From Nitrosomonas sp. Is79A3 (GTDB lineage: Bacteria; Pseudomonadota; Gammaproteobacteria; Burkholderiales; Nitrosomonadaceae): 64,000 nt of DNA. Numbering within the stretch: position 1 is the stretch's first letter; every line of letters starts with the position of its first letter. The notes beneath the pieces were generated by a model. The model ran no database searches, was not told where the DNA came from, and worked only from the letters and a program-made list of their open reading frames with translations. Made by a program: the position numbers and the translations under genes. The stretch covers positions 1,674,001 to 1,738,000 of the forward strand of contig NC_015731.1 in NCBI RefSeq assembly GCF_000219585.1. The letters run 5' to 3'. Of this stretch, positions 36 to 57,105 are shown one piece after another.

Positions 36-131
36 TCAACCTAGAGTCAAGCGGAACCCGATGTCGATGAGGCGATTGACAGGTCCGCGCCTGAAGCGGT
101 AAGCGGAACGCACTTCCCCGCCATTGAAGTT
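36..131 (-). other. DGR-type variable region of FGE-like gene (copy 1)
   Basis: The 23 codons at 63-131 follow the codon for W in GGSW, and positions 36-62 form the conserved tail. Against the equivalent region of the gene at 3603-6353, 28 of 69 bases differ, 17 of them with A in one copy. Blocks such as CGTTCCGCT and the following 15-nt ATCGGGTTCCGCTTG are identical. Changes fall mainly at the first two codon positions. This matches adenine-directed mutagenesis of AAC-rich template codons, with the tail acting as the IMH-like anchor. Confidence 0.6.
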
Positions 132-839: not shown

Positions 840-902
840 TTTGGTTGTACACCTGTTGTATGAAATTTGTTGACGGATGGCGCTACGCTTATCCGTCCTA
901 CC
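831..902. repeat. 72-bp direct repeat, copy 1 (contains start region of FGE gene and a REP)
   Basis: This 72-bp stretch is repeated at 3500-3571 with a single mismatch that I can see. It contains the AGGTG ribosome-binding site and ATG GAT AGC start of the FGE-like gene (minus strand) followed by one REP unit. The two copies bracket the RAYT/REP/IS1380 block. Confidence 0.85.
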
Positions 903-948
903 AATCTTATTTTTTGTAGGATGGATAAGCGTAGCGTCATCCATCGTA
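871..948. repeat. Pair of inverted REP elements next to RAYT
   Basis: Two REP units, 871-902 and 916-948, lie head to head. Each is an imperfect palindrome of the type GTAGGAYGGATAAGCG...ATCCRTC. Related units in the window are at 3291-3320, 3466-3497, 3540-3571, 55407-55439, 55618-55650 and 56852-56883. They lie beside a REP-associated tyrosine transposase gene, the expected arrangement for a REPtron. Confidence 0.8.
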
Positions 949-969
949 GTCCAATTCATTTCCGGCGAA

Positions 970-1503
970 TCAATTCCTTTCACCGGTCTCCCATGCTTCT
1001 GCTTCACACCCCGCCCAATCCTCTGGGTAAATCCCCTTCTTAACCATCTGATGAAACGTTGAATAAGGCCAATCTTTCACCGATTTTACCCAGCCATGCT
1101 TTACCGGATTGTAATGGATGTAATCCATATGAGCAGCATAGTCTGCGTCATTGTGGATAGTGTGTTCCCAAAAACGCCGCTGCCAGATGCCGCGTTCATG
1201 GCGTTTGATCCGGGCCTCAGAGCGGTATTCTATTTTGGGAATTGATTTGGAGAAAGTTTTCTTGATCAAGCGCCAGCGGTTGGAATAATCCGTATCCCCC
1301 TCGGGTAATGTCCAAATGCAATGCAAATGCTCCGGCAGCACAACCCAGGCATCAATATGAAACGGATACAATTGCCGAGTTTTCCGCACGGCTATGCGCA
1401 GTTCGTCAATATGCGTAACCAGCCATTGCGATTTGCGGTCAAGCAAATTAGCCGTGAAAAAATAAGTGCCACCAGGTTGCCGGTTGCGCCGGTAGTTTGG
1501 CAT
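970..1503 (-). CDS. REP-associated tyrosine transposase (RAYT, Y1_Tnp/IS200-like)
   Basis: 177 aa with the RAYT pattern: the HUH-type metal motif HLHCIW at about residues 60-65, the conserved RFWEHTI stretch, and the catalytic tyrosine region [10 protein letters not shown] near residue 130. RAYTs are domesticated single-stranded DNA transposases that act on REP palindromes. This gene has REPs on both sides (871-948 and, beyond the IS1380 insertion, 3291-3571), so the substrate and enzyme are together. Its upstream region was split by the IS1380 element, which begins about 45 bp before the start codon and may have removed its promoter. Confidence 0.9.
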
Positions 1504-1547
1504 GGGTCAAGTTGTTATCCAGTGAATGTGTAGTAATGTGTGATGAA

Positions 1548-3282
1548 CCTAAACTCCTCTGTTAGGTCACTCCAATGGCCAAAGAGGGTGGAAGGAAACC
1601 GAGGAGCTGTGAATTTTTCGGTCTGGTCGCAATAATTTTGTTAATGATATAACGTACAAGTACGCCCCAATGATCCGCTATGGTCAACTGAGGCGCATTT
1701 GCCAGAACATGATCAAGACCTTTTCGTATATTGGAGATCATCGACTTGATATGATCTCCGGCTGCGTGAGTCAGAGTGAGCAGCAATCGGGATTGACCGG
1801 CATGCTGGGTCAGGCGGGCAATGCCGCTGAGCAACATGGGACGGCTAGTGATTGCCTCCAGGCGTGTCTTCGGGTGTGCCAGTCTGACATACCAACTCCA
1901 CCAATTGTAGATGAGCGCGACTGCTCGCGCTGAGAGGTTGCAACGTTCCAGGTCTTGCGTGGTATAGCCACCCCAGCCCCATTGGTTTTTCAGCTCATCG
2001 AAGCCATTCTCGCAGTCGGCCCGATCCCGGTATAACTGGCCAATGGCGTCGAGGGAGTAGTTTGTATTGGTCACCAATATAGCGTATTCCCAGAGTTTAA
2101 CCTTGTCTGAATGGTCAATGAAGTGGAGCATCGGCTGCTGGTTCTCATTGCTCGTCTCGGCTGCCGCCATGCTGTCTTTGATTCGCCGCCGCAGTACCAC
2201 TACACGCCGCGCACCACTCCAACCCGTCAGCCGAAGCTTGCCTTCCACCGCGTCAAAGCCTTGCCCCGCGTTCTGCCAGTCGCCTTGCTGCCATTGCCGC
2301 TCGATCAGTCGCTTAACTCCGGCAGTTTGCCGTAGCTTGAAGAGGTAGTGCTGTTCAATTCGCTCCATCTCGACCATTACCCCCTGATTGCCAAAGGCAC
2401 TGTCACCGCGCACCAGGGCGGGGCGTTCCTCGGCAGCGAGTCGCTCAATTAGCCGGCACAGGCGCGGTAGGCTATGTTTCGCCGCACTGGCTTTACCGCT
2501 TTGTACCTCGACATCGAGCACCAGTCGAATGTTGCCGATCCAGTAGGTGTGCAAAGTATGGCTCGGCCGTCCCGGCTTGGTTGGGTTGTAGCCAATCTCG
2601 GCACCTGCCTGGTGACCATACAACAGTTTGACGCTGGTGTCGGCATCGAGTATCCAGGGTGTGCGTAAAGATTCTTGGGTACTCTCACCCAAGGCTTTAT
2701 CCATCCATGCTGTGCTCTTCGCCAGTTGGACTGCGTGGGCAGCGCGTTCTTCTTCGCTACCATACTTCTTGCATGGGGCCGGTGCCAAGTGCGCCAGTGC
2801 GCGACGCAGACTCTCGTCACTGATGATCTTGTTCATGCCGAGTATCCGGGGAGCAACTTCATCGCCGCGCAGCCCGGCAACATGTGCATAGCGCCGCTGT
2901 CCATCCAAGATCGATAATAGCCAGGTGCCAAGCACATCAACTACCTTGGGTGCGTTGGGACTGGTGTAATCCATTGGACATCCATCCACCCAGCGGGTGA
3001 ATAACCCAGAAACTTCCAAAAACTCGGCAAAGAATGGTAATTGCCCCAGTGCTGTGGCGCTTCCGCCTTCGTCCCAGCGAACGTGAAACCGGCCACCAGG
3101 AGTGGCTACGCTTTGTTCAGCCGTCGTTTGTTCCGTCTCCTGCAAAGTAGTATTGATCGCCTCGACCAGTGTCTTCTTCTCAAATTTAATTTCACCCATT
3201 GGGTGAGCCTCCTATTCTGTCGCAAACCCTTACCAGAAATACATTCGTGGCAATTTTACTGGAATCAACTGAGGAAAATAGG
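1548..3282 (-). mobile_element. IS1380-family insertion sequence, complete, with 5-bp target duplication
   Basis: The element is 1735 bp. Its left end reads CCTAAACTCCTCTGTTAGG and the inverted right end CCTATTTTCCTCAGTTGAT, giving imperfect terminal inverted repeats (about 14 of 21 positions). It is flanked by the direct repeat ATGAA at 1543-1547 and 3283-3287. Size, repeats and transposase all fit the IS1380 family. It lies between the RAYT gene and its upstream REP cluster. Confidence 0.85.
1562..3199 (-). CDS. IS1380-family DDE transposase
   Basis: 545 aa, full length. The DDE core is visible: D in WILDADTSVK, D in VRGDSAFGN, and E in YRDRADCENGFDELKNQWG. The family hallmark GYNPTKPGRPSH is present near residue 205. 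It fills almost the whole element at 1548-3282. The reading frame is intact, so the copy may be active. No passenger gene is present. Confidence 0.92.
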   Translation of the reverse strand: MGEIKFEKKTLVEAINTTLQETEQTTAEQSVATPGGRFHVRWDEGGSATALGQLPFFAEFLEVSGLFTRWVDGCPMDYTSPNAPKVVDVLGTWLLSILDGQRRYAHVAGLRGDEVAPRILGMNKIISDESLRRALAHLAPAPCKKYGSEEERAAHAVQLAKSTAWMDKALGESTQESLRTPWILDADTSVKLLYGHQAGAEIGYNPTKPGRPSHTLHTYWIGNIRLVLDVEVQSGKASAAKHSLPRLCRLIERLAAEERPALVRGDSAFGNQGVMVEMERIEQHYLFKLRQTAGVKRLIERQWQQGDWQNAGQGFDAVEGKLRLTGWSGARRVVVLRRRIKDSMAAAETSNENQQPMLHFIDHSDKVKLWEYAILVTNTNYSLDAIGQLYRDRADCENGFDELKNQWGWGGYTTQDLERCNLSARAVALIYNWWSWYVRLAHPKTRLEAITSRPMLLSGIARLTQHAGQSRLLLTLTHAAGDHIKSMISNIRKGLDHVLANAPQLTIADHWGVLVRYIINKIIATRPKNSQLLGFLPPSLAIGVT

Positions 3283-3290
3283 ATGAATGA

Positions 3291-3571
3291 GTAGGACGGA
3301 TAAGCGCAGCGCCATCCGTCAAGATGATCAATTTCATTGACCACAAATTTTGTATCCGTATCCAATTTTGTTAAAAAATACACCGCAATGATGCAGGATA
3401 ATGGGGGAAATGTAAGGGGTGATGGATAGTGTGTCAATGGTGATGGGTGGTGTGAAAGATGGTTATGACGGATGGCGCTGCGCTTATCCGTCCTACCTTG
3501 CTATCCATTTTGGTTGTACACCTGTTGTATGAAATTTGTTGACGGATGACGCTACGCTTATCCGTCCTACC
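3291..3571. repeat. REP cluster and second copy of the 72-bp repeat
   Basis: Three REP units at 3291-3320, 3466-3497 and 3540-3571 occupy the space between the IS1380 element and the end of the 916-aa gene. The segment 3500-3571 repeats 831-902. It therefore carries the same ribosome-binding site and ATG GAT AGC on the minus strand, here followed only by a short frame that runs into REP sequence. No gene was recognised between 3283 and 3602. Confidence 0.75.
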
Positions 3572-3602
3572 TTGCTTAGTTGGAGGAGTCCATTCCATTC
3601 GA

Positions 3603-3701
3603 CTACCTTGCTAGGACCAAGCGGAACCCGATGTAGAAGTTGCGCTTGACAGGCTCGATTCCGGCGCGGCGAGCGGAACGCGTGTGCCAGTTGAGGTCAT
3701 A
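3603..3701 (-). other. DGR-type variable region of the 916-aa protein (copy 2)
   Basis: The 23 variable codons (3633-3701) follow GGCW and precede the tail ATC GGG TTC CGC TTG, which is identical to that of the gene at 36-839. The variable window has the same length as in the other three FGE-like genes here. Invariant islands (CGT TCC GCT and CCT GTC) alternate with fully divergent codons. No GRNA-type hairpin is evident directly downstream; a REP palindrome occupies that space. Confidence 0.58.
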
Positions 3702-6353
3702 CCAGCAACCGCCACGCAGGACACGGTAAGTACCTTCATCAGGACTAAGTGGGTTTGTTACCGCTTGTTTGGGGTATTTGTCATGCCAATCCGTGCACCA
3801 TTCCCACACATTGCCATGCATTTCATACAATCCCCATGGATTCGCCGGCAATGATTTTACCGGCACTGTTTTCTCACGATATAGGCCTTTCTCGCCTCCG
3901 GCATAGGGACGCTCGCCATTATAGTTGACTTGCTCGGGTGTGATATTTTCTCCAAAAGAAAACGGTGTTTGGGTGCCAGCACGGCAGGCGTATTCCCATT
4001 GCGCCTCAGTTGGAAGATTGGTGTACAAATCCGGAAACAGCGCATTTAATTTTTCGATAAATTGCTGCGCATCGAGCCAAGTGACATTTTCTACCGGCAG
4101 ATTCGGATCATCCTGGAAATGGCTGGGATTTTCAGCCATTACCGCTGTCCATAATGCTTGCGTACAAGCGCTGTCGGCCAGCCAGAAACCATTTGTCAGT
4201 GTGACTTCATGCTGTGTTTCGTTATGGCTTCTTTCCGGTTCTGAATCCGGGGAGCCCATCAGGAAGGTGCCGGGGGTGATCCAGCGGAAGCGTTGGGTGA
4301 TGAGCTCTTCAGAAGAGGATAATTCGGTAATTTGAGGGTGTATGAACAGATCTGCATAAAGGCCGTATTGATCGATACCGAATGGTAATGGAATAAGCCA
4401 GGAACCCGCCCTGCCTGCTTCCCCAGTAAACCACTTGGCTGTATGTGCTACGCCGCGCCAGGCCGGCAGCCTGACAGATAAGCCTTCGGCATTACACCAG
4501 ATGTCGGTAGCCCAATCAGGTTTGTCGATGGCTTCCAGTTCCAGCCGCTGCCATGCGGTTTGTATCGTGATGATGTCATTATTTAAGTTGAACGTTTGAC
4601 CAGTGCGTATCATTGACGGGTTTTGGTCTGCCGGGGAAGAAAAGCGGTAAGTCGGCGGGAATGCAGGGTGTGCGTCAAATTGAACGACTGGGGGGACAAC
4701 TTCAGTATTTTGGGTACGTTGCTGGCAAATCAATTCACCGCGCGATCCGATTTGCTTGACTTGCCATTGCACGCGCTCATTGTGCTTTTGTTCATCCAGC
4801 ACCCATAACAGACGGCTTGGATCGAAACCGGGTTCTAAGTGATCAGGCCATCGTCCTGCGCGGATATCTTCTTGGTGTGCCATTGCGTATAAATCATACG
4901 CCAAGTCATCCATCGAACTGCGCCAAACATCTGTAGGAAGGCAATTCAGAATCGTTTGGCACTGCATCAGTAAAGCATTTTTTTGCGTTGTTTCCTGCGT
5001 CGTCGTGGCGCACAATCGCTGGAAATAGTGACGGATGTCATTGGTTTGATCACTAACTTCCATTACGCAGTGATTGAGTGCTTCCAGTCGATGCAGACCT
5101 TCGAATGCTTCTTTATGATGTTCTTGCACGCATTGCCACAATTTCGCGGACTCGGGTGAGTGGGTAAATTTTTGTTGATACCGCCGATGGTATTTTTTAA
5201 TCACTGAGTCATGCACGCGAATACCAAGGCTGGTTCGATGGACATCGGGATGATTCCAGATTTGGCTTTCCAGCTCGCTACTTCCCCATTTTAATTGATC
5301 ACGTAAACGCCGCAGCAATCCCTTGTCAATCAAGGGTAAAGGCGATAAAAGTGTCAGAATATCTTCGAATTTCTCCGCGGCAGGTTGGGGTAACCTAAAA
5401 CCGCGTCGGTTCGGGTGGCGAGGTACGCGATAGGTATCATTTAGCGGATTTGGGTTGATTAACCGGCATAGCGATAAGTTTTGTGGTGATTGGTCTGCGG
5501 GGCTCAGTGTCAGTATCGGTGCTGAATGGGTGTGCAAGTGTCTAAACATCCGTTGCCAGCGAATCCGCGCTTCAGGATACGAGTCGCTGATTCCTAAGTC
5601 ACTCAAAATTAGGATTGCTACATCGGCAGCAGGCACACGCCATGTAAACCAATCATCATTTTCTTGTGTAGGCCAGGCAATTACCTGCGCAGGCAATTTA
5701 CCCAGTGTATCTTCTTCAAATCGCAAGGAAGTGACAGCCTCTGTGCCCAACAGCTTCTTAAGCTGCGCGATAATGTCAGCGAAATCAGACCAGTAAGGTT
5801 CCAGAGCAGCTCGGGTATCCACGATGATTTGTAAGCGCTGCGGCCAACGATTGCGGGATAGATTAGGCAAGCGCCGTATGGGCTTGGCATTTGCTAACCA
5901 CCGAGTTACCCGCGGATAATCTATTTTGCCGGTTTTCTGGGGCTGCCCTAAACCGTTATGCAGAAACGGCAGCAAGCGCGACATTGCGAATAATGGGCGC
6001 GGAGGCGCGAATTGGAAGGTGCCCTTAGGTGCTGATTCCGCAGTCAGACGATAGCTCGGATCGTGCAGATAATGTGGTTGGTTAGTATTTAAATCATTTG
6101 ACTGGGTGAGTTGTTCACGTTTGTTAACGCGTAAAAATCGGGCAGAAGGGCGTGGAGCAGGTTCGCTGGTGGTATTGATTGGTAACGAGGATTCAGGTTT
6201 GTGCGTGTTATCGGAACTATCGCTATCGGATTCGTGCTGAAAAGACGAGATTTGTAGCGGTTTTGTTTCGTAGCCGAGCACTTGCGCCATTTTTTGCAAC
6301 GCTTCGTCATTTTCTCCCGCTGCATGAATCAGTACCAGTCGCTCCCAAACCAT
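3603..6353 (-). CDS. Large protein with C-terminal FGE/SUMF1-like domain, probable DGR-diversified sensor
   Basis: 916 aa. Residues 1 to about 680 match no domain I recognise; they include a low-complexity polar stretch (about 40-80) and a region (about 165-300) that could be a TIR-like or Rossmann fold. From about 685 an FGE/SUMF1-type domain follows: RFRWITPGTFLMGSP, LPTEAQWEYACRAG, EMHGNVWEWCTDW and LRGGCW. The end (3603-3701) is a DGR-like variable region. Catalytic FGE cysteines are absent. The ATG lies 2 nt beyond the MoxR stop, so the two are translationally linked. By analogy with the island at 49.7-56.8 kb it is the sensor of a TIR-MoxR system. Confidence 0.75.
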   Translation of the reverse strand: MVWERLVLIHAAGENDEALQKMAQVLGYETKPLQISSFQHESDSDSSDNTHKPESSLPINTTSEPAPRPSARFLRVNKREQLTQSNDLNTNQPHYLHDPSYRLTAESAPKGTFQFAPPRPLFAMSRLLPFLHNGLGQPQKTGKIDYPRVTRWLANAKPIRRLPNLSRNRWPQRLQIIVDTRAALEPYWSDFADIIAQLKKLLGTEAVTSLRFEEDTLGKLPAQVIAWPTQENDDWFTWRVPAADVAILILSDLGISDSYPEARIRWQRMFRHLHTHSAPILTLSPADQSPQNLSLCRLINPNPLNDTYRVPRHPNRRGFRLPQPAAEKFEDILTLLSPLPLIDKGLLRRLRDQLKWGSSELESQIWNHPDVHRTSLGIRVHDSVIKKYHRRYQQKFTHSPESAKLWQCVQEHHKEAFEGLHRLEALNHCVMEVSDQTNDIRHYFQRLCATTTQETTQKNALLMQCQTILNCLPTDVWRSSMDDLAYDLYAMAHQEDIRAGRWPDHLEPGFDPSRLLWVLDEQKHNERVQWQVKQIGSRGELICQQRTQNTEVVPPVVQFDAHPAFPPTYRFSSPADQNPSMIRTGQTFNLNNDIITIQTAWQRLELEAIDKPDWATDIWCNAEGLSVRLPAWRGVAHTAKWFTGEAGRAGSWLIPLPFGIDQYGLYADLFIHPQITELSSSEELITQRFRWITPGTFLMGSPDSEPERSHNETQHEVTLTNGFWLADSACTQALWTAVMAENPSHFQDDPNLPVENVTWLDAQQFIEKLNALFPDLYTNLPTEAQWEYACRAGTQTPFSFGENITPEQVNYNGERPYAGGEKGLYREKTVPVKSLPANPWGLYEMHGNVWEWCTDWHDKYPKQAVTNPLSPDEGTYRVLRGGCWYDLNWHTRSARRAGIEPVKRNFYIGFRLVLAR

Positions 6354-6355
6354 CG

Positions 6356-7369
6356 TTATTGATCCAATTCTTTTTTCAAGGCATAGGACGCAATTTTTTC
6401 CAGGCGCTGTTGTTGTTCATCATGGTTAAGACTTTGTAACGCACCGAGTAAGTCAATGTATTCTGCAAGTCCGGGCGGATAGCGGGAATAAGTGCTTGCA
6501 GTGCGATCGCTCCAAAGCAATTCGGCTGCTCGCAAATACACGGGTTCGGCGATGCGTTTGCCAAAATGCAACTTGCCGCGCTCGATGAGCCAGCTGTATC
6601 GTTTTTCGATATCACCTAATTTTTCAGTCGATTCTTCCATTCTCAATGTGTGTACCAGGCAGCGGCGCACAAAAGCTGTTGGGAGTTCCCGCTCTTCATT
6701 GGTGGTGATTACGACCAATAGGCGCGCAGGATCGGCTGTGATTGGATTCTTGAAGGCTTCGTTCTCATCATCGGGATTAATATAGGGCACAGTGAATTGA
6801 TAATTGCCAAGCGTTTCGAGCAAACCATTGGGTAAATCCGGTTCGGCTTTGTCCATTTCGTCCAGCAACAACACCACGCCATCCGGACTGGATACGCGCG
6901 AGTTTGGGATGAATTGGGGTTTGGGGCGCCATTTGTTGGCGCAAGCATGATATTGTAATTCTGCCGATTGCCAGTCATACGCCCACCAGAAAGCGCCCGG
7001 TGATAAGAAATGCCGCGGATTCATCCGGTTTTCCCAATCACTTTCGGATAATCCCGGCTTATTACTCATGGCTTGCGCTTCACCCAGTCGGCCGATAGCG
7101 TCAAAATGCCAATGCAAATCACTCAATTCCGTATTGCCGCGAATCACTTCGCTGACAAATGCTCAACCTAGCTGCTCAGCAATGGCTTTGGCCATTTGAC
7201 TTTTTCCGGTACCCGGCTTGCCGCGGACCAGTAACGGACGACCGGCAGCATAAGCAGCCCAGAGTGCGTAACAATCGTTCTCATCAAAGATATGATGCAG
7301 ATGTTTGCTTGGATTTGAGACTCTTAAATCCGGTGGAAGAAAATGTTGTAATTGTGGTGGCGTAAACAT
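6356..7369 (-). pseudogene. MoxR-type AAA+ ATPase interrupted by an in-frame TGA
   Basis: The frame would encode 337 aa but TGA at 7163-7165 stops it at codon 69, after AKAIAEQLG; the frame continues as AFVSEVIRGN without a shift. A tryptophan (TGG) is expected there in this family, so a single G-to-A change explains it. Walker A GKPGTGKS is at residues 50-57, upstream of the stop. Walker B (VVLLLDEMDKA) and the sensor region (TTNEERELPTAFVRRC) are downstream. MoxR ATPases remodel partner proteins, often vWA or sensor proteins. The downstream part could restart at GTG 7147, but would lack Walker A. Read-through or sequencing error is also possible. Confidence 0.85.
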
Positions 7370-7382
7370 AAGAATTTCCCTG

Positions 7383-8810
7383 TTACTTCAGCGATAGAAG
7401 CGTGGCATATTGGTCAAGCAATGATTTTGGATCATGGTAAGGTGATGATGTATCTTTACTTGGGCTTTGATTAAAACAAACAAACTGAATATATTCAGCT
7501 GATTGTTGTGACATCTCCGGATACCATGTCTGAATTTCAAACAATTTGAGTGTAGCTTCCGACATGAGGTAATAGATCGGTCTGCGGTTGACATTAAAAT
7601 GTGATTTTGCAAGTGTATAAATACCATCCCGGAGTTCTTGAGGTTCAGGGGGATATTGATCCGATTTATGCAAATCTTTGTAAATCGGTGCTAGCAGCTG
7701 CATTTCGGTTGCGTTGGGTGAAATACTATCAAATAGTGCCATTTCATCGTTACCATTTGCCGGTTGCGCAATTCCTTTGGAATCTAATTTAAATCTGGCC
7801 TGCTGTAACAGGCTTCGAGAGACAATGACTTCAACATACGGAGGATGCATTAACGAGTATCTGCGACTTATACTTTTGTTGGACAATTGCTTCATCTTCA
7901 ATTGATGATTGAACCACCAATTGGAATCGACACTGTTGATCAGCAGCCAACCGCCAATCTGAGTTGCTTGAAAATGACATTCTCCCCATTGCTCCGGGTT
8001 GGAAAATTTTAATTTTTCTCGTTTGTCTTGTATGACGCGAGTTAAAACAGCAATAGCATTTTCGAGTTCGCTTTCGTCTACCCAATGTTGCGCAATATCA
8101 TTTGCCGTTATCCCTGGCGCTAAGCCGATTTCACGTGCTAACTTATCGATTGCCACAAAATTGGTTTTTAGAATCTCAGTCACTTCCCTTTTGATCGTAC
8201 TATGCAGTAATTCTTTTTCTTCTGCGACTGCTGAGTGTATAGCGGCCCGGTTGGCAATAAGGTAATCGCCAAGTATTTTGTCTTTATCGCCGTGCTCCAA
8301 CGATGGGTGAAGTTTATCCAAATACGGTGAAATGACGTTTTTCCAAACGGTTTCGATTTGTTGCCACGCAGCTTCAGGATCGGTATTGAGTAGGCGTGCC
8401 AGTTCGTCACGGATAGCTTTGTTTTCTTCCCAGTATTTTTTTGCATTCGTCCATTGATATGCATTCATATTTTCTGTGACCCGGATCGGATGGATAAAAC
8501 GCCGATCAAGGTCAGCCCATTGGTCGATGGTGACCAGCTCATACAGCGTATAAGCAGATTCGAAGTAATCGAGTGTAAGGAATATGAAAATGCAGCGAGC
8601 GGAAGCCAATTCATCCATAAAAGCTTTGATGCTTTCACCTGGCTTGATTTCCTGATTGTCATAAACAAATTTGATATTTTGATCCGAGCAATGCTTTTCA
8701 AGCAATTCGAGTGCTGTTGCATTGTGTGTATTTCTCTGGCGATAGGATAGGTAGGCTGTTATTGGAATTTGGTTTGCCGATTTACTGGTCGAGTTGTTTT
8801 GTTCAGTCAT
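7383..8810 (-). CDS. TIR-domain protein, putative NADase effector
   Basis: 475 aa. Residues about 16-110 look like a TIR domain: ITAYLSYRQRN as the first strand, FVYDNQEIKPGESI, then FIFLTLDYFESAYTLYEL, where the last glutamate matches the catalytic position of NAD-cleaving TIRs. The remaining 360 residues are mostly helical and unrecognised; VAEEKELLHSTIKREVTEIL could form a coiled coil. The gene precedes the MoxR ATPase by 13 bp and is part of the same transcription unit. A signalling or abortive-infection role is inferred from domain and context. Confidence 0.78.
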   Translation of the reverse strand: MTEQNNSTSKSANQIPITAYLSYRQRNTHNATALELLEKHCSDQNIKFVYDNQEIKPGESIKAFMDELASARCIFIFLTLDYFESAYTLYELVTIDQWADLDRRFIHPIRVTENMNAYQWTNAKKYWEENKAIRDELARLLNTDPEAAWQQIETVWKNVISPYLDKLHPSLEHGDKDKILGDYLIANRAAIHSAVAEEKELLHSTIKREVTEILKTNFVAIDKLAREIGLAPGITANDIAQHWVDESELENAIAVLTRVIQDKREKLKFSNPEQWGECHFQATQIGGWLLINSVDSNWWFNHQLKMKQLSNKSISRRYSLMHPPYVEVIVSRSLLQQARFKLDSKGIAQPANGNDEMALFDSISPNATEMQLLAPIYKDLHKSDQYPPEPQELRDGIYTLAKSHFNVNRRPIYYLMSEATLKLFEIQTWYPEMSQQSAEYIQFVCFNQSPSKDTSSPYHDPKSLLDQYATLLSLK

Positions 8811-49656: not shown

Positions 49657-49750
49657 TTAGTTTTTTGCCTGAAACTTTCTTTCTGAACCGGCAATTCATC
49701 CGCTTAGCCACGCCTTTGACAACGCATTGGACATTCAGTACATTTGCCCA

Positions 49751-51061
49751 ATGACCAAAGTATTCATCAGCTACAGCCACGATTCCGACGAGCACCGCGA
49801 GTGGGTACTCCGTCTATCCGAGTGCCTGCGCCAGAATGGCATAGTAACGATCATTGACCGCGACTTTGAAAACAGCTCTCCACCGGAAGGCTGGCCACGC
49901 TGGATGTTGAATTCGCTGGATAAAGCAACGCATGTGTTGTGCATTTGCACCGGAATCTATTATCGCCGTTTCCGCGGATTCGAAGTTCCCGGAAAAGGTA
50001 AAGGGGTAGACTGGGAAGGCACTGTGATCACGCAAGCACTCTACGATGCGCGCAATGTTTCCAACAAATTCATCGCAGTGCTGCGTACTTCAACTGACGA
50101 ACCGTTTATTCCGGAACCACTAAGGCCACGAACCCATTATGTGCTGAACACTGAAAACAGCTACCCGGCACTTTACAAGGTATTGCGGAATCAAAATGGC
50201 GTGAAACCGGGAATTGTTGATCAGTCAAAAACAAAACCGCCACGTACCCCGGAATATTTATTGGGTTTGTTGGATAGAAAGCCGCAATATGGACATTTTG
50301 ACGATCATGTCCCCGAAAGGCGACACGTTAACGAAGGAAAGGCTTATGGATTTTGTATTTTCGGTCTCCGAAACGAATGGCCTAACGCGGTGCGGTTTAC
50401 GCTGTCGCATTTGCTTGAAGAGCACAAGATCGCTAATCCCAAGAAGGCTCCGGACTTTGGTTTGCTGGAAACAAGGCTAAATCTAAGAAATAAAAGTACA
50501 GGAATTCAGCAAGCTGAGTTGGCATCAATAGGCGAAGCGTATTTATGGAAGCTTTTGGGGCACCGCTTGGATCGCAATCCTGAAAAACCGGATATTTTGA
50601 AGATGCTGCAGAGTAAAGAAGCATCGCATATTTTTTTCCGTGAATTGACTGCGGACGAGGTTAAAAATCATGCTTTCATCGCCGGATTGCTGCTAGCATG
50701 GTCTAAGCTCACATTCGGCACCAACTCTCCCGATCATTTCCTCTTGCTGATTTGCGAATCGGATTACTTGGGCGATTCAATGCTTGATCGGTTATTTCAG
50801 AAACAATCATCTTCGAGGTGGTATCGGGATTTGGAGAAACTGCTATCCCAACATGGGTTACAAAATTCGTTGTTGCCGGCACTCGGCCCACCGAACGTTG
50901 CCGAAGATGTCGAAGATTGGCTAAAAAACCGAGAAGAAATACCAGAACATTTACGCAGCACGATTCGAAAAATACTTTCCAAGCATTCAGCCATCCCGCT
51001 TGGAGATTTGAAAGAAAAAATATTCCCGTTATTACAAAACTACCAATCAACCCGAGAGTAA
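49751..51061 (+). CDS. SEFIR-domain protein (TIR superfamily), putative effector
   Basis: 436 aa from the ATG at 49751; a TTG 24 bp upstream is less likely. Residues about 1-150 form a SEFIR domain: TKVFISYSHDSDEHREWVLR, LSECLRQNGIVTIIDRDF, and ATHVLCICTGIYYRRFRGFE. SEFIR domains are related to TIR and mediate signalling or act as effectors in bacteria. The C-terminal 280 residues are unrecognised, mostly helical, and resemble effector-associated adaptor regions in general composition. It starts an operon with the MoxR ATPase (7 bp downstream). It is the counterpart of the TIR protein at 7383-8810. Confidence 0.82.
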   Translation: MTKVFISYSHDSDEHREWVLRLSECLRQNGIVTIIDRDFENSSPPEGWPRWMLNSLDKATHVLCICTGIYYRRFRGFEVPGKGKGVDWEGTVITQALYDARNVSNKFIAVLRTSTDEPFIPEPLRPRTHYVLNTENSYPALYKVLRNQNGVKPGIVDQSKTKPPRTPEYLLGLLDRKPQYGHFDDHVPERRHVNEGKAYGFCIFGLRNEWPNAVRFTLSHLLEEHKIANPKKAPDFGLLETRLNLRNKSTGIQQAELASIGEAYLWKLLGHRLDRNPEKPDILKMLQSKEASHIFFRELTADEVKNHAFIAGLLLAWSKLTFGTNSPDHFLLLICESDYLGDSMLDRLFQKQSSSRWYRDLEKLLSQHGLQNSLLPALGPPNVAEDVEDWLKNREEIPEHLRSTIRKILSKHSAIPLGDLKEKIFPLLQNYQSTRE

Positions 51062-51067
51062 CCCATC

Positions 51068-52228
51068 ATGTCAATTTTTTTAGAACCGCACTATTACTTG
51101 GGACCCAACAACAAGCATCCTAAGCCGCAAAAATGGCGCGATCTACCCGGATTCAACCCCGATGATTTGACGCACCCGAAGGATTATTTGGCGCCGCAGG
51201 GATTAGTGACGGCCGTCAATGTGGCGCTAGAGCTGGGTATGCCGCTGTTGCTGACTGGCGAGCCGGGTTGCGGCAAGTCGCAACTGGCTTATAGCCTGGC
51301 ATGGGAATTGGATCATCCGCAAAATCCGAATGATGCTTGGCAAAGACCGCTGGCTTTCACCGTCAAATCGGATACGCAAAGCCGCGATTTGTTTTATCAC
51401 TTTGATACCTTGGGGCGATTCCGCGCCACCCGCAGGGATGGTGAAAACGACGATCCCCGGCGTTTCTTGCGTTTTGAAGCGCTTGGCATGGCGATCTTGC
51501 AAGCATTGGGAATAGACGCCGTCAGCAAGCTTGGATTGTACGATTGTCTTGATGTGTCGGGCGAATCGCAACCGGTTGCAGAACCACGGCGCTCGGTGGT
51601 GTTAATCGACGAAATCGACAAAGCGCCGCGCGAGGTGCCGAATGACATTTTGAACGAAATCGAACGCATGAGTTTTGATGTTCCGGAATTGTTCGAAACC
51701 GCGCGCAAGAAAACCACGATATCGCTGCAATCGGCAGCAATGCGTCCGATTGTGATCATCACCAGTAATCGCGAACGCGAATTGCCGGATGCTTTCCTGC
51801 GCCGCTGCGTGTATTACCACTTAGAATTGCCGGCTTTCCGCAGCAAACCCAGCAACAGCAACGGTTCTTCAATTGACGACAATGTCACCATCGAAGAGAT
51901 TATCGAGAAACGGCTGGGCATCAAAATCCAAACGGAAGAGCACGTGCCGAATGCGCAGAAAAGCGTTTGGGCAGCCGGTATTTCTTTTTTCCATTATCTG
52001 CGTAACGAAGCCCGGCTGGAGATACAGCCCTCCATCGCGGAACTGCTGAATTGGATGCAACTACTGCAAAAGCGCGGCAAAGGGTTAGCAGAGACGCCGC
52101 ATTTAACCAATACCGCATGGCTCGATGTGTTCACCACCAGCGCCAGTGTGACGTTGCTGAAACACAAAGAAGACCAGGAGCGTATCAAAAATTTGATCGA
52201 CGGCTGGAAAGCGCAACCGGTATCCTAA
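51068..52228 (+). CDS. MoxR-type AAA+ ATPase
   Basis: 386 aa. Walker A GEPGCGKS is at residues 64-71. Walker B is SVVLIDEIDKAPREVPND at about 175-192. The sensor-1 and arginine-finger region is IITSNRERELPDAFLRRC. An insert of about 60 residues (LGRFRATRRDGENDDPRRFL and beyond) separates strands. It corresponds to the interrupted ATPase at 6356-7369 but is intact. MoxR ATPases normally work on a partner encoded next door; here that would be the 1043-aa protein, 9 bp downstream. Confidence 0.92.
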   Translation: MSIFLEPHYYLGPNNKHPKPQKWRDLPGFNPDDLTHPKDYLAPQGLVTAVNVALELGMPLLLTGEPGCGKSQLAYSLAWELDHPQNPNDAWQRPLAFTVKSDTQSRDLFYHFDTLGRFRATRRDGENDDPRRFLRFEALGMAILQALGIDAVSKLGLYDCLDVSGESQPVAEPRRSVVLIDEIDKAPREVPNDILNEIERMSFDVPELFETARKKTTISLQSAAMRPIVIITSNRERELPDAFLRRCVYYHLELPAFRSKPSNSNGSSIDDNVTIEEIIEKRLGIKIQTEEHVPNAQKSVWAAGISFFHYLRNEARLEIQPSIAELLNWMQLLQKRGKGLAETPHLTNTAWLDVFTTSASVTLLKHKEDQERIKNLIDGWKAQPVS

Positions 52229-52237
52229 GCTAAATCC

Positions 52238-55200
52238 GTGGATAGCCGCAAATTTTATTCCCGCATCGATGGATTGGGTGCGTTGCTGCGTGCCGAGGGT
52301 ATGGCGCACGGCGTCGATGTTTGGATGTCGGTGGCTCGCCTATTGGAGCGTCTTGAACGACAAGGAAGATTGCCCCACGATGCGAGCGATCTTGCGCCGC
52401 TGCTGAGGCCCCTGTTTTGCCGCAATCCGCAAGATCAAGCACGTTTTCCGGTGTTGTTTGAACAATGGCTAAAAGGTGAAAGCCAATCATCCCTGGCAAA
52501 GGAAAACCGTATCAGCTCACCAGGCCGCAGTGCCTTCGTTGCAGCGCAAGAAGCCGCGCAAAAAACGCAAAAAATCTGGATCATGGGCGGCATCGCGCTG
52601 ATCGTCTGCGTGATCGCCGTGTTGCTGGTCAAAGGACCGGATTGGTTTCTGCCAAAACCACCGCCGCCGCCGACCATAAAAATCCCTGAAAAACCGTCAC
52701 AGCCGATTCCCCGACGCAAACCGCAACCGGCCACTGCAACCGTTGCCATCGTCGATCACATCGCGCCCCGGCCGCAACCGGAACCGGATTACGTGGGATT
52801 AGAATGGGAAAGTATCGTGCGCAATATCGGCTGGGCGTTGTTCGCATTGCCTTGGTTGCCGGTGCTGTTGATTTTGGCTTGGCGCTATCAACGCAACGCG
52901 GTTTTGCGCAAACAAACCGCATCGGTTGACGACCTGCTGCATCATTTTCGCTTTGATCGCTTACTGCAACCCTTTTTTGGCGGCGCCAAGGCCGAGCAGG
53001 CATTACGCGAATTGCACGCAGCGCGGCAGGTACCGACGAATCGCCTGCATATCACCGCCACCATCGAAGCCACCGCGCGCAACGGTGGTTTTTTCCAACC
53101 GGTGTACCGCAATCGCCGTGTTTCTCCTGAACACTTACTGCTGGTGCGCAGCCAGCATCGCAACGACCAGCAAGCGGCATTGGCGGAAGAACTGGAGAAG
53201 CGCTTTAAAGCACTCGGACTGCCAATCAACACTTATCGCTTTCGCGACGATCCGCGCTGGCTGGTGCGCTGGCATGACGACGACAGCAAAGCTAGCTACT
53301 ACCAACTGCAGCAACTGGTGGCGCGGCACGAAGCCGCACGTTTACTGATCATCAGCGAAACAGCGATTCTGTTTCATCCATATAGCGGGGAGATTCGCAC
53401 CTGGCTCGATGATTTGTCGCCTTGGCAGGACAAAGTTTGGCTGCACCCGCGCGATGCCGGTACCGCACACGCAGCACTATTGGCGCAGCACCACTTTCTG
53501 ATGCTGCCGCTGGCGCAAGACAACCTGCCGCAACTGGTCGAGCATCTGACCACGCCGCAACCGCACAAGCTGATGTTACAAAAAACGGATCCATCGCCGC
53601 TGCCCGCGCTGATCGCTGCCGAACCCGATGCCTGGCTCGGTGAGCGCCCGCCTTATGGTGCGAATCTTGACTTGCTGGTGCAGCAATTGGAGCAATTCCT
53701 GCATGCCGATGGTTTGCGTCTGTTGCGCGCAGTGGCGGTATTTCCAAAGCCGCACTGGGCGTTGACACGCGCGTTGGATTATTTGCTATTTGAAAACTTA
53801 AGTACAGCCGATCCGCTACCGCAGCGCGAACAGCGGCTGGCGCGCTTGAGCCGCTTGCCGTGGTTGACGCATGCGCATTTGCCGGATTGGCTGCGGGAAT
53901 ACCTCCTACTCGGCATGGACCGTGACGAAAGGCAACAAATAGCCACTGCCTGGCAGCGCTTATTCAACCGTCTGACCGATAAGGACAGCCCCAATTCGCT
54001 GAGCCTTGAAGTCAGAACACCGCCTAAGCTGCAACTTAAACTAAAGCTCGATGACTTGCGCGCACTCTCTCAGGACGATGCGATCAACGACCCGATTTTT
54101 GCCAATATCCTGCTGGGCGGAAAACTGGGCTTGTTGGATTTCCGTATTCCACAAGCTCTGGCTAAGCTGCTGCCTAAAACCAATCAATCGCTGATTCTGC
54201 GCCCGGCCTTAATCCTGCTGTTTTGGGTGCTGCTCGGCACCGGTACGTTATACGCGGCCTGGCATTACGTTGGCCAGCACGCATTCATCGACTATCAACG
54301 CAACCAAATGGCGCAGGAAAATGCCCAATGGCGCGTCACGCTCAACCACCGCGAAGATACGCAAGTACTGATGGAAGCGCTGCAAAGCAAGCTGAAAACC
54401 GCTCAATTTCCCGTATCCATCGGATCGGATACCCTCAATGCCACGACGATCAACACCATCCATTTTGCGCGCGGCGGGCAGGCTGCTGCCGTACGGATTA
54501 CACGCAGTCTGGCTTGGCTGACGTATGGCGCAGCGATCAACGTGATGGCGTCAACAGACTTATCCGCAGGTACTATTCAAGTACAGCTTAACCGCACGTA
54601 TCAACACGGTGCAGGATTTAATGATGAGTTGCGCGCAGCACAAGAATCCCGGCTTCCGTTTGAGCCAGAAATGGTGCGTATCCCACCCGGAAAATTCCTA
54701 ATGGGTTCGCCTAAAACCGAAGCTGGTCGAAGTTCTAACGAAGATCCGCAACACGAAGTCACCATCACCTACGCTTTTGAAATCAGCAAATATGAAGTCA
54801 CATTTGACGAATACGATGCGTTTGCCAACGCCACCAAGCGGCAATTACCCAGTGGTGGTGGTTGGGGGCGCGGCAAACGCCCGGTAATCAATGTGAGCTT
54901 TAACGACGCGCAAGCCTATGTTAAATGGTTGTCGGACAAAACCGGTAAGCAATACCGCCTGCCAACGGAAGCCGAATGGGAATATGCCGCACGGGCTGGA
55001 AGCGAAACGGCATACTGGTGGGGTAATGACGTCGGCAAAATCTATGCAAACTGCGCTGGTTGCGGCAGTGAATGGGATGGTAAACAGACTGCACCAGCGG
55101 ATTCATTTAACCCCAATGCATTCGGCCTGCATAACACGGCAGGTAACGTGTGGGAATGGGTGGAGGATTGCTGGCATGAGAATTATCAAGGCGCGCCAGC

Positions 55201-55369
55201 AGATGGCTCGGCGTGGAAGGAAGCCAATGGCGGGGATTGTAATCGCCGGGTGGTTCGGGGCGGTTCGTGGAGCATCGGTCCACTGAACTTGCGATCGGCT
55301 AACCGTAACCGGAACTTCACCGTTGCTGCCAACTTCAGTTTGGGTTTTCGCATCGCCAGGGCTTTTTGA
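52238..55369 (+). CDS. Large membrane protein with C-terminal FGE/SUMF1-like domain, probable DGR-diversified sensor
   Basis: 1043 aa with a GTG start at 52238. The first 80 residues (GLGALLRAEGMAHGVDVWMS, RFPVLFEQWLKG) recall the N-terminus of CoxE-type MoxR partners. Transmembrane helices are likely at about 113-131, 198-216 and 653-675, with a proline-rich linker at about 138-185. The region 230-640 is an unrecognised soluble domain. From about 807 an FGE/SUMF1-type domain follows: MVRIPPGKFLMGSP, YRLPTEAEWEYAARAGSE, NTAGNVWEWVEDCWHENYQG, VVRGGSWSIG and FRIARAF. Catalytic FGE cysteines are absent. The codons are visibly more GC-rich than neighbours. The last 23 variable codons look DGR-made. 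Confidence 0.82.
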   Translation: MDSRKFYSRIDGLGALLRAEGMAHGVDVWMSVARLLERLERQGRLPHDASDLAPLLRPLFCRNPQDQARFPVLFEQWLKGESQSSLAKENRISSPGRSAFVAAQEAAQKTQKIWIMGGIALIVCVIAVLLVKGPDWFLPKPPPPPTIKIPEKPSQPIPRRKPQPATATVAIVDHIAPRPQPEPDYVGLEWESIVRNIGWALFALPWLPVLLILAWRYQRNAVLRKQTASVDDLLHHFRFDRLLQPFFGGAKAEQALRELHAARQVPTNRLHITATIEATARNGGFFQPVYRNRRVSPEHLLLVRSQHRNDQQAALAEELEKRFKALGLPINTYRFRDDPRWLVRWHDDDSKASYYQLQQLVARHEAARLLIISETAILFHPYSGEIRTWLDDLSPWQDKVWLHPRDAGTAHAALLAQHHFLMLPLAQDNLPQLVEHLTTPQPHKLMLQKTDPSPLPALIAAEPDAWLGERPPYGANLDLLVQQLEQFLHADGLRLLRAVAVFPKPHWALTRALDYLLFENLSTADPLPQREQRLARLSRLPWLTHAHLPDWLREYLLLGMDRDERQQIATAWQRLFNRLTDKDSPNSLSLEVRTPPKLQLKLKLDDLRALSQDDAINDPIFANILLGGKLGLLDFRIPQALAKLLPKTNQSLILRPALILLFWVLLGTGTLYAAWHYVGQHAFIDYQRNQMAQENAQWRVTLNHREDTQVLMEALQSKLKTAQFPVSIGSDTLNATTINTIHFARGGQAAAVRITRSLAWLTYGAAINVMASTDLSAGTIQVQLNRTYQHGAGFNDELRAAQESRLPFEPEMVRIPPGKFLMGSPKTEAGRSSNEDPQHEVTITYAFEISKYEVTFDEYDAFANATKRQLPSGGGWGRGKRPVINVSFNDAQAYVKWLSDKTGKQYRLPTEAEWEYAARAGSETAYWWGNDVGKIYANCAGCGSEWDGKQTAPADSFNPNAFGLHNTAGNVWEWVEDCWHENYQGAPADGSAWKEANGGDCNRRVVRGGSWSIGPLNLRSANRNRNFTVAANFSLGFRIARAF
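55271..55369 (+). other. DGR-type variable region of the 1043-aa protein (copy 3)
   Basis: The 23 codons at 55271-55339 follow GGSW. The tail at 55340-55369 is nearly identical to that of copy 4 (2 of 30 differ). In the 69 variable bases 25 differ from copy 4, and 21 of these have A in one copy. The 69 bases upstream differ at only 6 positions. Third codon positions stay C/T in most variable codons, as expected from AAC/AAT template codons. Confidence 0.78.
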
Positions 55370-55375
55370 TGGTTT

Positions 55376-55577
55376 GTTCTTTGTGATTTGTGGTTTTATG
55401 GTTTTTGTAGGATGGATTAGCGCAGCGTAATCCGTCATAGATTTGGTTTCGTGCTCCGCTGCTTGGTGCATTGCGCTATGCGGAATAGCACCCTAATTTT
55501 TGGGTTTGCTGTCATTCCGAACGCAGAGAGGAATCTTTTGCGGTGGCGCAAGATTTCTCCCTTTGGTCGAAATGACA
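55376..55577 (+). repeat. Duplicated 3' flank with REP and inverted-repeat elements
   Basis: The segment from about 55376 to 55542 is colinear with 56814-56988: TTTGTGATTTGTGGTTTT, a REP (55407-55439 and 56852-56883), a second REP-like palindrome GGTGCATTGCGCT (55465-55494 and 56912-56941), and GTCATTCCGAACGCAG. In the first copy GTCATTCCGAAC at 55511 pairs with a GAAATGACA arm ending near 55577, forming a MITE-like inverted repeat. Another REP lies at 55618-55650 and a REP-like palindrome at 55723-55753. Confidence 0.75.
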
Positions 55578-55801
55578 CAATGGGGTCTTTTGATGTTTGC
55601 GGGTTGTTTAGCTTTATGTAGGACGAATAAGCGGAGCGTTATCCGTCATAACCATTTTTGGTTACTTTGTTGGTTGCGTTTTAAGCGATAGGACGGTTTT
55701 TTATGACATTGAACAGAGAAATGGTGCATTGCACTTCGCTGAATGCACCCTACGATGCTTACCAGCCAAAGAATTTGCTGTGTTCGGCCAGGGGCAGCTC
55801 G

Positions 55802-56791
55802 GTGTTACGAAGCTGCCGCTTTTTATCGCTGCTGCTGAGTTTGATTTTTTCTCAGGGAATCCATGCCAGTGAGGATGTTTTGCTACGAGGTGGTCAAAAT
55901 GCCAAAGAAAAAGCGGTTACCCAGCAATTAGCGCAAACTTGCTATGCCACCGAGGCCAAATTGGCACCTGCGATGGTAGCAATTCGTCCAGATCGATTTT
56001 TGATGGGATCACCGGAAAACGAAAAAGATCGTCAATCGGATGAAGGCCCGCAGCATTTAGTTTCAATTCCAAACCCCTTTGCCATCAGCCGCTGTGAAAT
56101 TACCGTGGGGCAGTTTAAACAATTTGTTCAAGAAACCAATCATCGCACGACTGCTGAAGAGAACGGCAAAGGTTGTACTGTGTGGAATGCTGAGAAAAAA
56201 CAACCGGAACAATTGCCGGAGCATAACTGGAAGAATCCTGGATTTGCTCAAACTGATGCCCATCCGGTGGTCTGCGTTTCCTGGGATGATGCCCAAGCCT
56301 ATGTGAAATGGCTGTCGCACCGCACGGGCGCGGCTTACCGCTTGCCAACCGAAGCGGAATGGGAATATGTGGCACGGGCGGGAACGAAAACAGCACGCTT
56401 TTATCAGGACGGCAAGCAATGCGATTACGCCAATGGTTTGGGTCAAGAAGCAAAATCGAATGCTGACGCTAACTGGACGCTGGCGGAATGTTCCGATGGA
56501 CATGTTTATACCGCACCGGTTGCCAGTTTTGGAGAAAATCATTTCGGTTTGTTTGATCTGTTGGGCAACGTCTTGGAATGGACTGAAGACTGCTGGCATA
56601 AGAATTATCAAGGCACGCCAGCGGACGGATCGGCGTGGAAAGAAGCCAATCGCGGAGATTGTACTCGCCGGGTGGTTCGGGGCGGTTCGTGGCTCTACGA
56701 TCCGCAGGGCTTGCGATCGGCTAACCGTGTCAGGACCGGCTCCGATGAAGCCGACAACGACCTGGGTTTTCGTATCGCCAGGGCTTTTTGA
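55802..56791 (+). CDS. Secreted FGE/SUMF1-like protein, probable DGR target
   Basis: 329 aa if started at the GTG at 55802, which has AGGGG upstream and yields a clean signal peptide (RSCRFLSLLLSLIFSQGIHA). A longer frame from ATG 55703 would translate a REP-like repeat. The FGE-type domain runs from about 55970: MVAIRPDRFLMGSPENEKDR, YRLPTEAEWEYVARAGTK, LLGNVLEWTEDCWHKNYQGT and VVRGGSWLYD to FRIARAF. Its last 100 residues are very close to those of the 1043-aa protein except in the 23-codon variable window, so the pair arose by duplication. Export to the periplasm or surface fits a binding role. Confidence 0.82.
   Translation: MLRSCRFLSLLLSLIFSQGIHASEDVLLRGGQNAKEKAVTQQLAQTCYATEAKLAPAMVAIRPDRFLMGSPENEKDRQSDEGPQHLVSIPNPFAISRCEITVGQFKQFVQETNHRTTAEENGKGCTVWNAEKKQPEQLPEHNWKNPGFAQTDAHPVVCVSWDDAQAYVKWLSHRTGAAYRLPTEAEWEYVARAGTKTARFYQDGKQCDYANGLGQEAKSNADANWTLAECSDGHVYTAPVASFGENHFGLFDLLGNVLEWTEDCWHKNYQGTPADGSAWKEANRGDCTRRVVRGGSWLYDPQGLRSANRVRTGSDEADNDLGFRIARAF
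56693..56791 (+). other. DGR-type variable region of the secreted FGE-like protein (copy 4)
   Basis: The 23 variable codons (56693-56761) encode LYDPQGLRSANRVRTGSDEA and three more residues. Combining copies 3 and 4 by choosing A wherever either has it gives an inferred template close to NNDPQNLRSANRNRNNTDEA, the asparagine-rich pattern of known DGR templates. No template copy is seen in the window. Confidence 0.78.
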
Positions 56792-57105
56792 TCTTTTGTC
56801 ATTTTGTTCTTTGTGCTTTGATTCTTTGTGATTTGTGGTTTTGTGGTTTTTGTAGGATGGATTAACGCAGCGTAATCCGTCATTACTGTAGTTTCGTTCG
56901 CCACTGTTCTTGGTGCATTGCGCTTTGCTTAATGCATCCTATTTTTTTGGTTTAGTGTCATTCCGAACGCAGTGAGGAATCTTTTGCGATTCTTTGACCT
57001 GTTAACGGCTGTGAAAAAATCGATTTTCCCGAAGGATAGTAGTGTGGAGAAGCTGTTGTCGAACCCATGCGTTTTTTGTGTGCGTGGGCGATAGACAACT
57101 TCCAA

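What the first reader, a model, noticed from the sequence alone, without database searches (positions are those of the whole stretch)
55271..56791. Adenine-biased hypervariable windows in two duplicated FGE-like genes: DGR mutagenesis signature
The 23 codons after GGSW in the 1043-aa protein (55271-55339) and in the next gene (56693-56761) differ at 25 of 69 bases, and 21 of those 25 have A in one copy. The preceding 69 bases differ at 6 and the following 30 at 2. Taking A wherever either copy has it yields an asparagine-rich template like those of known diversity-generating retroelements. Ordinary drift would not confine changes to these codons.
Basis: partly seen in the sequence, partly recalled or inferred. 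Interest (0 to 1): 0.93.

Follow-up and report, generated by a model that had tools for sequence, protein, structure and literature searches.

The report
Hypermutated gene pair without its mutator
In the ammonia-oxidising bacterium Nitrosomonas sp. Is79, two neighbouring genes each carry a short stretch changed mainly at the adenines of a known template, the mark of a targeted-mutation system called a diversity-generating retroelement, but searches of its complete genome found neither the reverse transcriptase nor the template that sit between the same two genes in related species, so the two genes are likely frozen in their last version.

Summary
It is DGR mutagenesis. The relative G021 has the same locus with avd, reverse transcriptase and template repeat (TR) between the two target genes; against that TR the window's copies differ at 14/30 and 15/30 template adenines but at 3/51 and 0/51 other sites. 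In the window genome (3,783,444 bp, the length of Nitrosomonas sp. Is79) the cassette is missing: 1673 bp of G021 face 161 bp here, and searches found no RT, Avd or TR genome-wide. These are orphan variable repeats. Of 23 genomes of the genus seen with this VR family, 5 hold the cognate RT. The scar is shared with one other species, G008, whose repeats differ from the window's mainly at template adenines and bear another template's mark, so at least one lineage was probably rewritten after the loss, in trans or by imported alleles. A second target pair in the window has an IS and a REP transposase where relatives keep the RT. New variant of a known kind.

The parts
49727..51061 (+). SEFIR/TIR-domain gene upstream of the target pair (putative effector)
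   Evidence: Pfam SEFIR 4e-11 and TIR_2 2e-10; PADLOC bSEFIR 4e-46
51068..52228 (+). AAA_5 ATPase (MoxR-like) gene
   Evidence: Pfam AAA_5 2e-10; NCBIfam MadB_ATPase below its cut-off
52238..55369 (+). target gene 1, 1043 aa, FGE domain at residues 810-1041
   Evidence: Pfam FGE-sulfatase 2e-56
55259..55351 (+). VR1 (GGSW to GFR); TR-homologous stretch 55242-55359
   Evidence: 14/30 TR adenines and 3/51 other sites changed; extent by blastn to the G021 TR
55407..55439 (+). REP-like palindrome behind VR1, where many relatives have a GC-rich hairpin
   Evidence: inverted repeat; pattern copy
55598..55758 (.). scar: 161 bp in the place of 1673 bp (avd, RT, TR) of G021; holds a REP-like palindrome at 55618 and, at 55703, the first ATG of the gene 2 reading frame
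   Evidence: blastn to G021; alignment with G008, G016 and G021; of 85 genus genomes only G008 shares it at length
55703..56791 (+). target gene 2, 362 aa, FGE domain
   Evidence: Pfam FGE-sulfatase 9e-64; PDB relatives PvdO, FGE and Treponema variable protein 1 (2y3c, 2e-6)
56681..56773 (+). VR2 (GGSW to GFR); TR-homologous stretch 56665-56781
   Evidence: 15/30 TR adenines and 0/51 other sites changed
56852..56884 (+). REP-like palindrome behind VR2
   Evidence: pattern copy; best inverted repeat in the 150 nt behind VR2

Best explanation
The two windows are variable repeats of a diversity-generating retroelement whose writing cassette (avd, reverse transcriptase, template repeat) is missing from between the two target genes and was not found in the rest of the genome, so both repeats are likely frozen. 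Mechanism (known for DGRs, inferred here): the RT copied template RNA with errors at adenines and the cDNA replaced the 3' end of each target gene, changing residues of an FGE/C-type-lectin-like domain that would act as sensor of a SEFIR/AAA-ATPase conflict system. Shown: the changed sites are template adenines, relatives hold the cassette between the same two genes, and a 161-bp scar stands there in the window. Inferred: the cassette was deleted rather than never present; the repeats were written fairly recently; and at least one of the two species sharing this scar was rewritten after the loss, by a writer elsewhere in the cell that is now gone or by target alleles imported from cassette-bearing relatives.
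For: Template adenines: VR1 14/30 against 3/51 other sites, VR2 15/30 against 0/51. Cassette between the same two genes in G021, G082, G038, G006 and G009. Own genome: no RVT_1 match, no Avd, no third TR/VR copy; the G021 RT as query finds only a 20-residue stretch at VR1, where its gene overlaps the TR; one replicon, no extrachromosomal elements in the genome paper (passages). Scar 55598-55758 against 1673 bp in G021, shared with G008 (87% over 182 nt). G000 and G008 VRs differ at 20/30 and 14/30 adenines against 4/51 and 1/51 other sites; three of five scored G008 VRs, at two loci, carry C48, both G000 VRs T48. The 200 nt before VR1 are 99.5% identical to G016, yet VR1 differs there at 19/30 adenines.
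Against: The own TR is not available; the G021 TR stands in for it, and VR1 has 3 non-adenine differences from it. rpoB and gyrB disagree on the branching of G000, G008 and G021, the locus is mosaic between species, and G021 with a cassette falls among scar-bearing relatives, so 'lost once, then rewritten' is not the only history. The G000-G016 comparison also has 6/51 non-adenine differences, more than the flank. G008 and G016 are drafts of 97% and 99% completeness and could hide an RT.
Confidence: 0.84

Rival explanations
1. VR alleles written in cassette-bearing relatives reached cassette-less genomes by homologous recombination; no writer acted in the scarred lineages.
For: Mosaic identities along the locus: G000-G016 99% at 55000-55200 against 72-96% in the 200-nt bins from 51200 to 54999; G021-G016 94-100% at 51200-52399, where G000-G021 falls to 70-76% in three of six bins.
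Against: VR1 differs at 19/30 adenines from G016 although the 200 nt before it are 99.5% identical, so import alone, without later writing in one of them or in a donor, does not suffice. The C48 mark on VRs at two G008 loci points to a template rather than piecemeal import.
Confidence: 0.3
2. The cassette-free arrangement is the older state of this locus in the G000/G008 group, and cassettes entered G021 and others later by horizontal transfer or recombination.
For: G021, with cassette, nests among cassette-free relatives in both gene trees. RT identity G021-G082 (89.2% nt, third positions 77.2%) exceeds that of rpoB (84.6%, 61.2%).
Against: Five cassettes spread over the rpoB tree sit at the same place between the same two genes. 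VRs of cassette-free genomes were written by a template of this family, so a writer was once there or near. T31 of the G021 TR is shared with the G000, G008 and G016 VRs but not with the G082 TR.
Confidence: 0.2
3. A live writer still serves these VRs in Is79 from a place that the assembly or the searches miss.
For: Trans action is likely in the genus: a G082 target on contig C80 matches the TR on contig C68 at 52/52 non-A sites and differs at 16/29 adenines. VR2 has no non-A change at all.
Against: Closed 3,783,444-bp genome without extrachromosomal elements; no RVT_1, Avd or third TR-like copy. Both VRs lack the palindrome that follows 25 of 39 VRs in the genus.
Confidence: 0.05
4. Ordinary divergence of two duplicated FGE genes, with drift or positive selection on a binding loop and no retroelement.
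For: FGE genes are common in this genome (10 PF03781 matches) and loops can diverge fast.
Against: Changes fall on adenines of a template found in relatives (p = 2.5e-5 and 1.9e-8) next to a DGR-type RT and Avd.
Confidence: 0.01

Closest known systems
DGR loci of Thiohalocapsa PB-PSB1 and related cellular DGRs (PMC10907252; passages and sections 7 and 8 read)
   Same: C-type-lectin/FGE targets beside MoxR-like ATPase and TIR-type genes; incomplete loci where repeat arrays replaced the RT; targets inferred to be written in trans from a perfect match at non-adenine sites.
   Different: PB-PSB1 keeps working RTs elsewhere in the genome. Here searches found no RT at all, and the deletion scar is shared with another species.
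RT-less DGR fragments of Nanoarchaeota (PMC4372165) and the all3226 paralogue in a cyanobacterium (PMC7517822); passages read
   Same: VRs with a history of adenine mutagenesis and no RT beside them; those authors already offer fossil, remote writing, or removal of the components after an optimal variant.
   Different: By those passages the absence is local; here it covers a closed genome, with related loci with and without cassette to date the loss.
BPP-1 DGR target site (PMC3240598; abstract and passages read)
   Same: Adenine mutagenesis and a GC-rich hairpin behind VR needed for efficient retrohoming; a 19-nt palindrome follows 25 of 39 Nitrosomonas VRs and 0 of 5 TRs.
   Different: The palindrome here has a 3-nt GNA loop, not 4-nt GRNA, starts 37-60 nt after the GFR codon, and is missing behind both VRs of the window.

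Membership tests
Diversity-generating retroelement | VR/TR differences confined to template adenines | tested here: met
   14/30 against 3/51 and 15/30 against 0/51, with the TR of a relative
Diversity-generating retroelement | VR at the 3' end of a gene with a C-type-lectin/FGE domain | tested here: met
   FGE-sulfatase to within a few residues of both C-termini; PDB 2y3c among relatives
Diversity-generating retroelement | Template codons that adenine mutagenesis cannot turn into stops | tested here: met
   0 of 27 codons of the G021 TR in the target frame
Diversity-generating retroelement | DGR reverse transcriptase in the genome | tested here: not met
   No RVT_1 match and no cognate RT in the own genome; present in five relatives
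Diversity-generating retroelement | Template repeat in the genome | tested here: not met
   Only the two VRs match
Diversity-generating retroelement | Avd accessory protein | tested here: not met
   10 of 85 genus genomes match PF22296, the own genome does not
Diversity-generating retroelement | GC-rich hairpin behind VR | tested here: not met
   Genus palindrome behind 25 of 39 VRs, not behind the two of the window; a REP-like palindrome stands there. Some VRs of cassette-bearing genomes lack it too
Diversity-generating retroelement | Ongoing variation at VR in the population | not testable with these tools
   No reads or strains of the same species at hand
MoxR/VMAP-type ternary conflict system as described in PMC10907252 | MoxR-like ATPase directly upstream of a target gene whose N-terminal part has no known domain | tested here: met
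   AAA_5 at 51068-52228; only the FGE domain found in target gene 1
MoxR/VMAP-type ternary conflict system as described in PMC10907252 | vWA domain and VMAP protein | tested here: inconclusive
   No vWA or VMAP model in the eight window genes; the paper describes a variant without vWA (clade 5A), but RT clade placement was not tested

The most novel reading that the evidence does not exclude
In Nitrosomonas the DGR writer is a transient tenant and the targets are the permanent residents: avd-RT-TR cassettes are lost, with REP, RAYT and IS elements in their place, and regained, while target genes stay, recombine between species, are rewritten in bursts by a writer acting in trans, and are then locked. 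Surveys that start from the RT would miss most such targets.
Probability: 0.3. Interest if true: 0.8.

Novelty: new variant of a known kind. Interest (0 to 1): 0.58.

Why it matters
A large DGR survey (PMC8144416, passages) begins by finding the RT and says that it would not detect remote targets, so targets without a writer go uncounted. In this genus 18 of the 23 genomes seen with this VR family show no cognate RT, five of the 18 in one or two contigs. If the targets are immune sensors, as proposed for related loci, this makes a question testable: do bacteria write a repertoire, keep one version and discard the mutator? A deletion scar shared by two species with differing VRs on either side gives a way to date writing against loss.

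Tried and rejected
Ordinary drift or selection alone: rejected by the template adenines. Live DGR in the own genome: no RT, Avd or TR found. REP-like palindrome as the retrohoming hairpin: a different 19-nt palindrome fits better across the genus, but G021 VR1, both G038 VRs and one G006 VR, all beside cassettes, lack it, so its need is not shown. Species order: rpoB puts G021 beside G008 (support 1.0), gyrB puts G021 beside G000 (0.83); in both the cassette-bearing G021 lies within the group spanned by the two scar-sharing genomes, so cassette regain or spread of the scar is needed; I could not decide which. Non-A changes in VRs with and without their own cassette (0-1 in 7 against 0-13 in 29, Mann-Whitney p = 7e-4): confounded, since cassette-less VRs were scored against another species' TR and the remote VR of G082 was filed in the second group; three VRs of other length were dropped, and the G066 VR was left out because it lacks the LRSA string. 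VRs of one genome share non-A marks more than shuffled labels (1.45 against 0.75, p = 0.015): weak. The REP count used a pattern drawn from the two loci it then finds, so it is biased. VR counts per genome are lower bounds, because one search scored at most four candidates a genome. (rpoB) read one strand only and is void; one search replaces it. One search failed on a file name; one search replaces it. Not done: structure prediction, the search for homologous proteins, any read mapping.

Full report
Observation. The window is 1674001-1738000 of a single 3,783,444-bp contig rated 100% complete. That length equals the chromosome of Nitrosomonas sp. Is79, whose genome paper gives one replicon and no extrachromosomal elements (passages of PMC3764937). 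The identification rests on that length and on the Nitrosomonas relatives.

The template exists in relatives. An exact 17-base pattern from the conserved middle of the repeats found 23 stretches in genome contigs; two of them, both Nitrosomonas, carry this kind of repeat by a GGSW...GFR search. The RT matches RVT_1 and a PHROG reverse transcriptase; its best PDB relative is 8ub7 (that this is the BPP-1 DGR RT is recalled). The small protein passes the cut-off of NCBIfam DivGenRetAVD.

Mutagenesis test. Against the G021 TR, over 81 nt, VR1 differs at 14 of 30 adenines and 3 of 51 other sites (p = 2.5e-5), VR2 at 15 of 30 and 0 of 51 (p = 1.9e-8). Across 36 VRs of standard length in the genus, sites that are A in the G021 TR read A 474, T 288, G 276 and C 42 times. 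None of the 27 codons of the template frame can become a stop by changing its A.

The writer is missing. In the own genome there is no RVT_1 match, no Avd and no third TR/VR copy. The G021 RT as query finds only a 20-residue stretch at VR1, where its gene overlaps the TR. Aligned with G021, the window is co-linear to 55597 and again from 55759; 1673 bp of G021 holding avd, RT and TR face 161 bp here. A REP-like palindrome starts at 55618, close to the left junction.

Genus picture. The genus has 85 genomes held. Twenty-three carry VRs of this family in the loci fetched, a lower bound. Five of them (G006, G009, G021, G038, G082) have an RT at least 68% identical to that of G021, between two target genes in each. 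Eighteen have no such match, five of them in one or two contigs (G000, G028, G043, G045, G066). Most of the others are drafts, and some (for example G048 and G067) have distant DGR-like RTs or an Avd. G059 and G062 carry other DGR types and are not among the 23.

Order of events. Of 85 genus genomes, only G008 shares the scar at length (87% over 182 nt; other matches are under 60 nt). G000 and G008 VRs differ at 20/30 and 14/30 template adenines against 4/51 and 1/51 other sites. Three of five scored G008 VRs, at two loci, share C48, whereas both G000 VRs and the G021 TR have T48. G009 shows that VRs copy such marks: its TR and both its VRs have C48. So the VRs of the two scarred loci come from different templates, and at least one was written after the loss if the scar is one event. 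Further, 200 nt before VR1 are 99.5% identical between G000 and G016, yet VR1 differs at 19/30 adenines and 6/51 other sites. Against a simple tale: the locus is mosaic between species, and rpoB and gyrB disagree on the branching. Import of alleles by recombination stays a serious rival.

Trans action. In G082 a target on contig C80 matches the TR on contig C68 at 52 of 52 non-A sites and differs at 16 of 29 adenines, so a cassette of this family likely writes remote targets.

Landing site. A 19-nt palindrome, GCAGGGGCGNAGCCCCTGC, lies 37-60 nt after the GFR codon of 25 of 39 VRs with the LRSA motif, within three mismatches, and after 0 of 5 TRs. BPP-1 needs a hairpin behind VR for efficient retrohoming (PMC3240598, abstract and passages). 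Both window VRs lack the palindrome and have a REP-like one instead. Since G021 VR1, both G038 VRs and one G006 VR lack it as well, its loss alone does not prove the sites dead.

What the genes would do. Upstream are a SEFIR/TIR protein and an AAA ATPase. PMC10907252 describes DGR targets of such layout as putative antigen sensors of conflict systems and names Nitrosomonas species among organisms with multiple related DGRs (passages). The sensor role is inference. In G008, target gene 1 is broken by a 10-nt gap just before GGSW and a frame change near residue 245; in the window both genes are open.

A second locus. At 36-8810 on the minus strand lie a TIR gene and two FGE genes of 916 and 323 aa, relatives of the G062 and G059 DGR targets (45% along the G062 protein, up to 73% in the FGE domain). 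Where G062 and G059 have RT and TR, this genome has an IS transposase and a REP-associated tyrosine transposase. The A bias there is weak (15/25 against 12/56 and 13/25 against 13/56 with the G059 TR), as expected for an old relic.

Literature. RT-less DGR pieces are known: Nanoarchaeota fragments (PMC4372165, passages), a cyanobacterial paralogue (PMC7517822, passages) and replaced RTs in Thiohalocapsa (PMC10907252). My searches on DGR with Nitrosomonas, orphan, loss, relic, trans or remote targets, gene loss and REP transposase listed no title or abstract on writer-less targets in Is79 or on a genus-wide count; of the listed papers I opened only those cited, and only open-licence papers are held.

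Verdict. The DGR signature is real. The new part is a DGR target pair whose writer is missing from a whole closed genome, with relatives showing that absence of the writer is common in the genus and that writing and loss can be uncoupled.

Noticed in passing
window 36-8810 (- strand): Second DGR-type target locus: TIR gene, 916-aa and 323-aa FGE genes, with an IS transposase (1562-3199) and a REP-associated tyrosine transposase (970-1503) where G062 and G059 have RT and TR.
   Followed up: partly
window 881-936, 3291-3570, 55407-55638, 56852-56872: REP-like palindromes: 10 copies in the whole genome with at most one mismatch, 8 of them at the two target loci of this window (the pattern was drawn from these loci, so it is biased).
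   Followed up: partly
L007 (G000:C1:818590-822192) and L010 (G000:C1:100795-104322): Two further FGE genes with VR-like ends of another DGR type: against the second TR of G038, L007 differs at 16/26 adenines and 5/55 other sites (p = 1.4e-6, best of ten TRs tried), L010 at 17/26 and 12/55.
   Followed up: partly
L108 (G008:C8), about 1836-1857 and 4100-4130: G008 target gene 1, at the scar-sharing locus, is broken by a frame change and a 10-nt gap, a possible decay after loss of the writer.
   Followed up: no
downstream of VRs in the loci: Conserved 19-nt palindrome GCAGGGGCGNAGCCCCTGC behind 25 of 39 VRs and 0 of 5 TRs; usable as a handle to find remote targets without an RT.
   Followed up: partly
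window 56693-56703 and L108 VR2: VR2 of G000 and G008 begin with the same changed letters CTCTACGATCC, as if only the rest was rewritten; the distant G009 VR2 begins alike, so chance or selection is possible.
   Followed up: no
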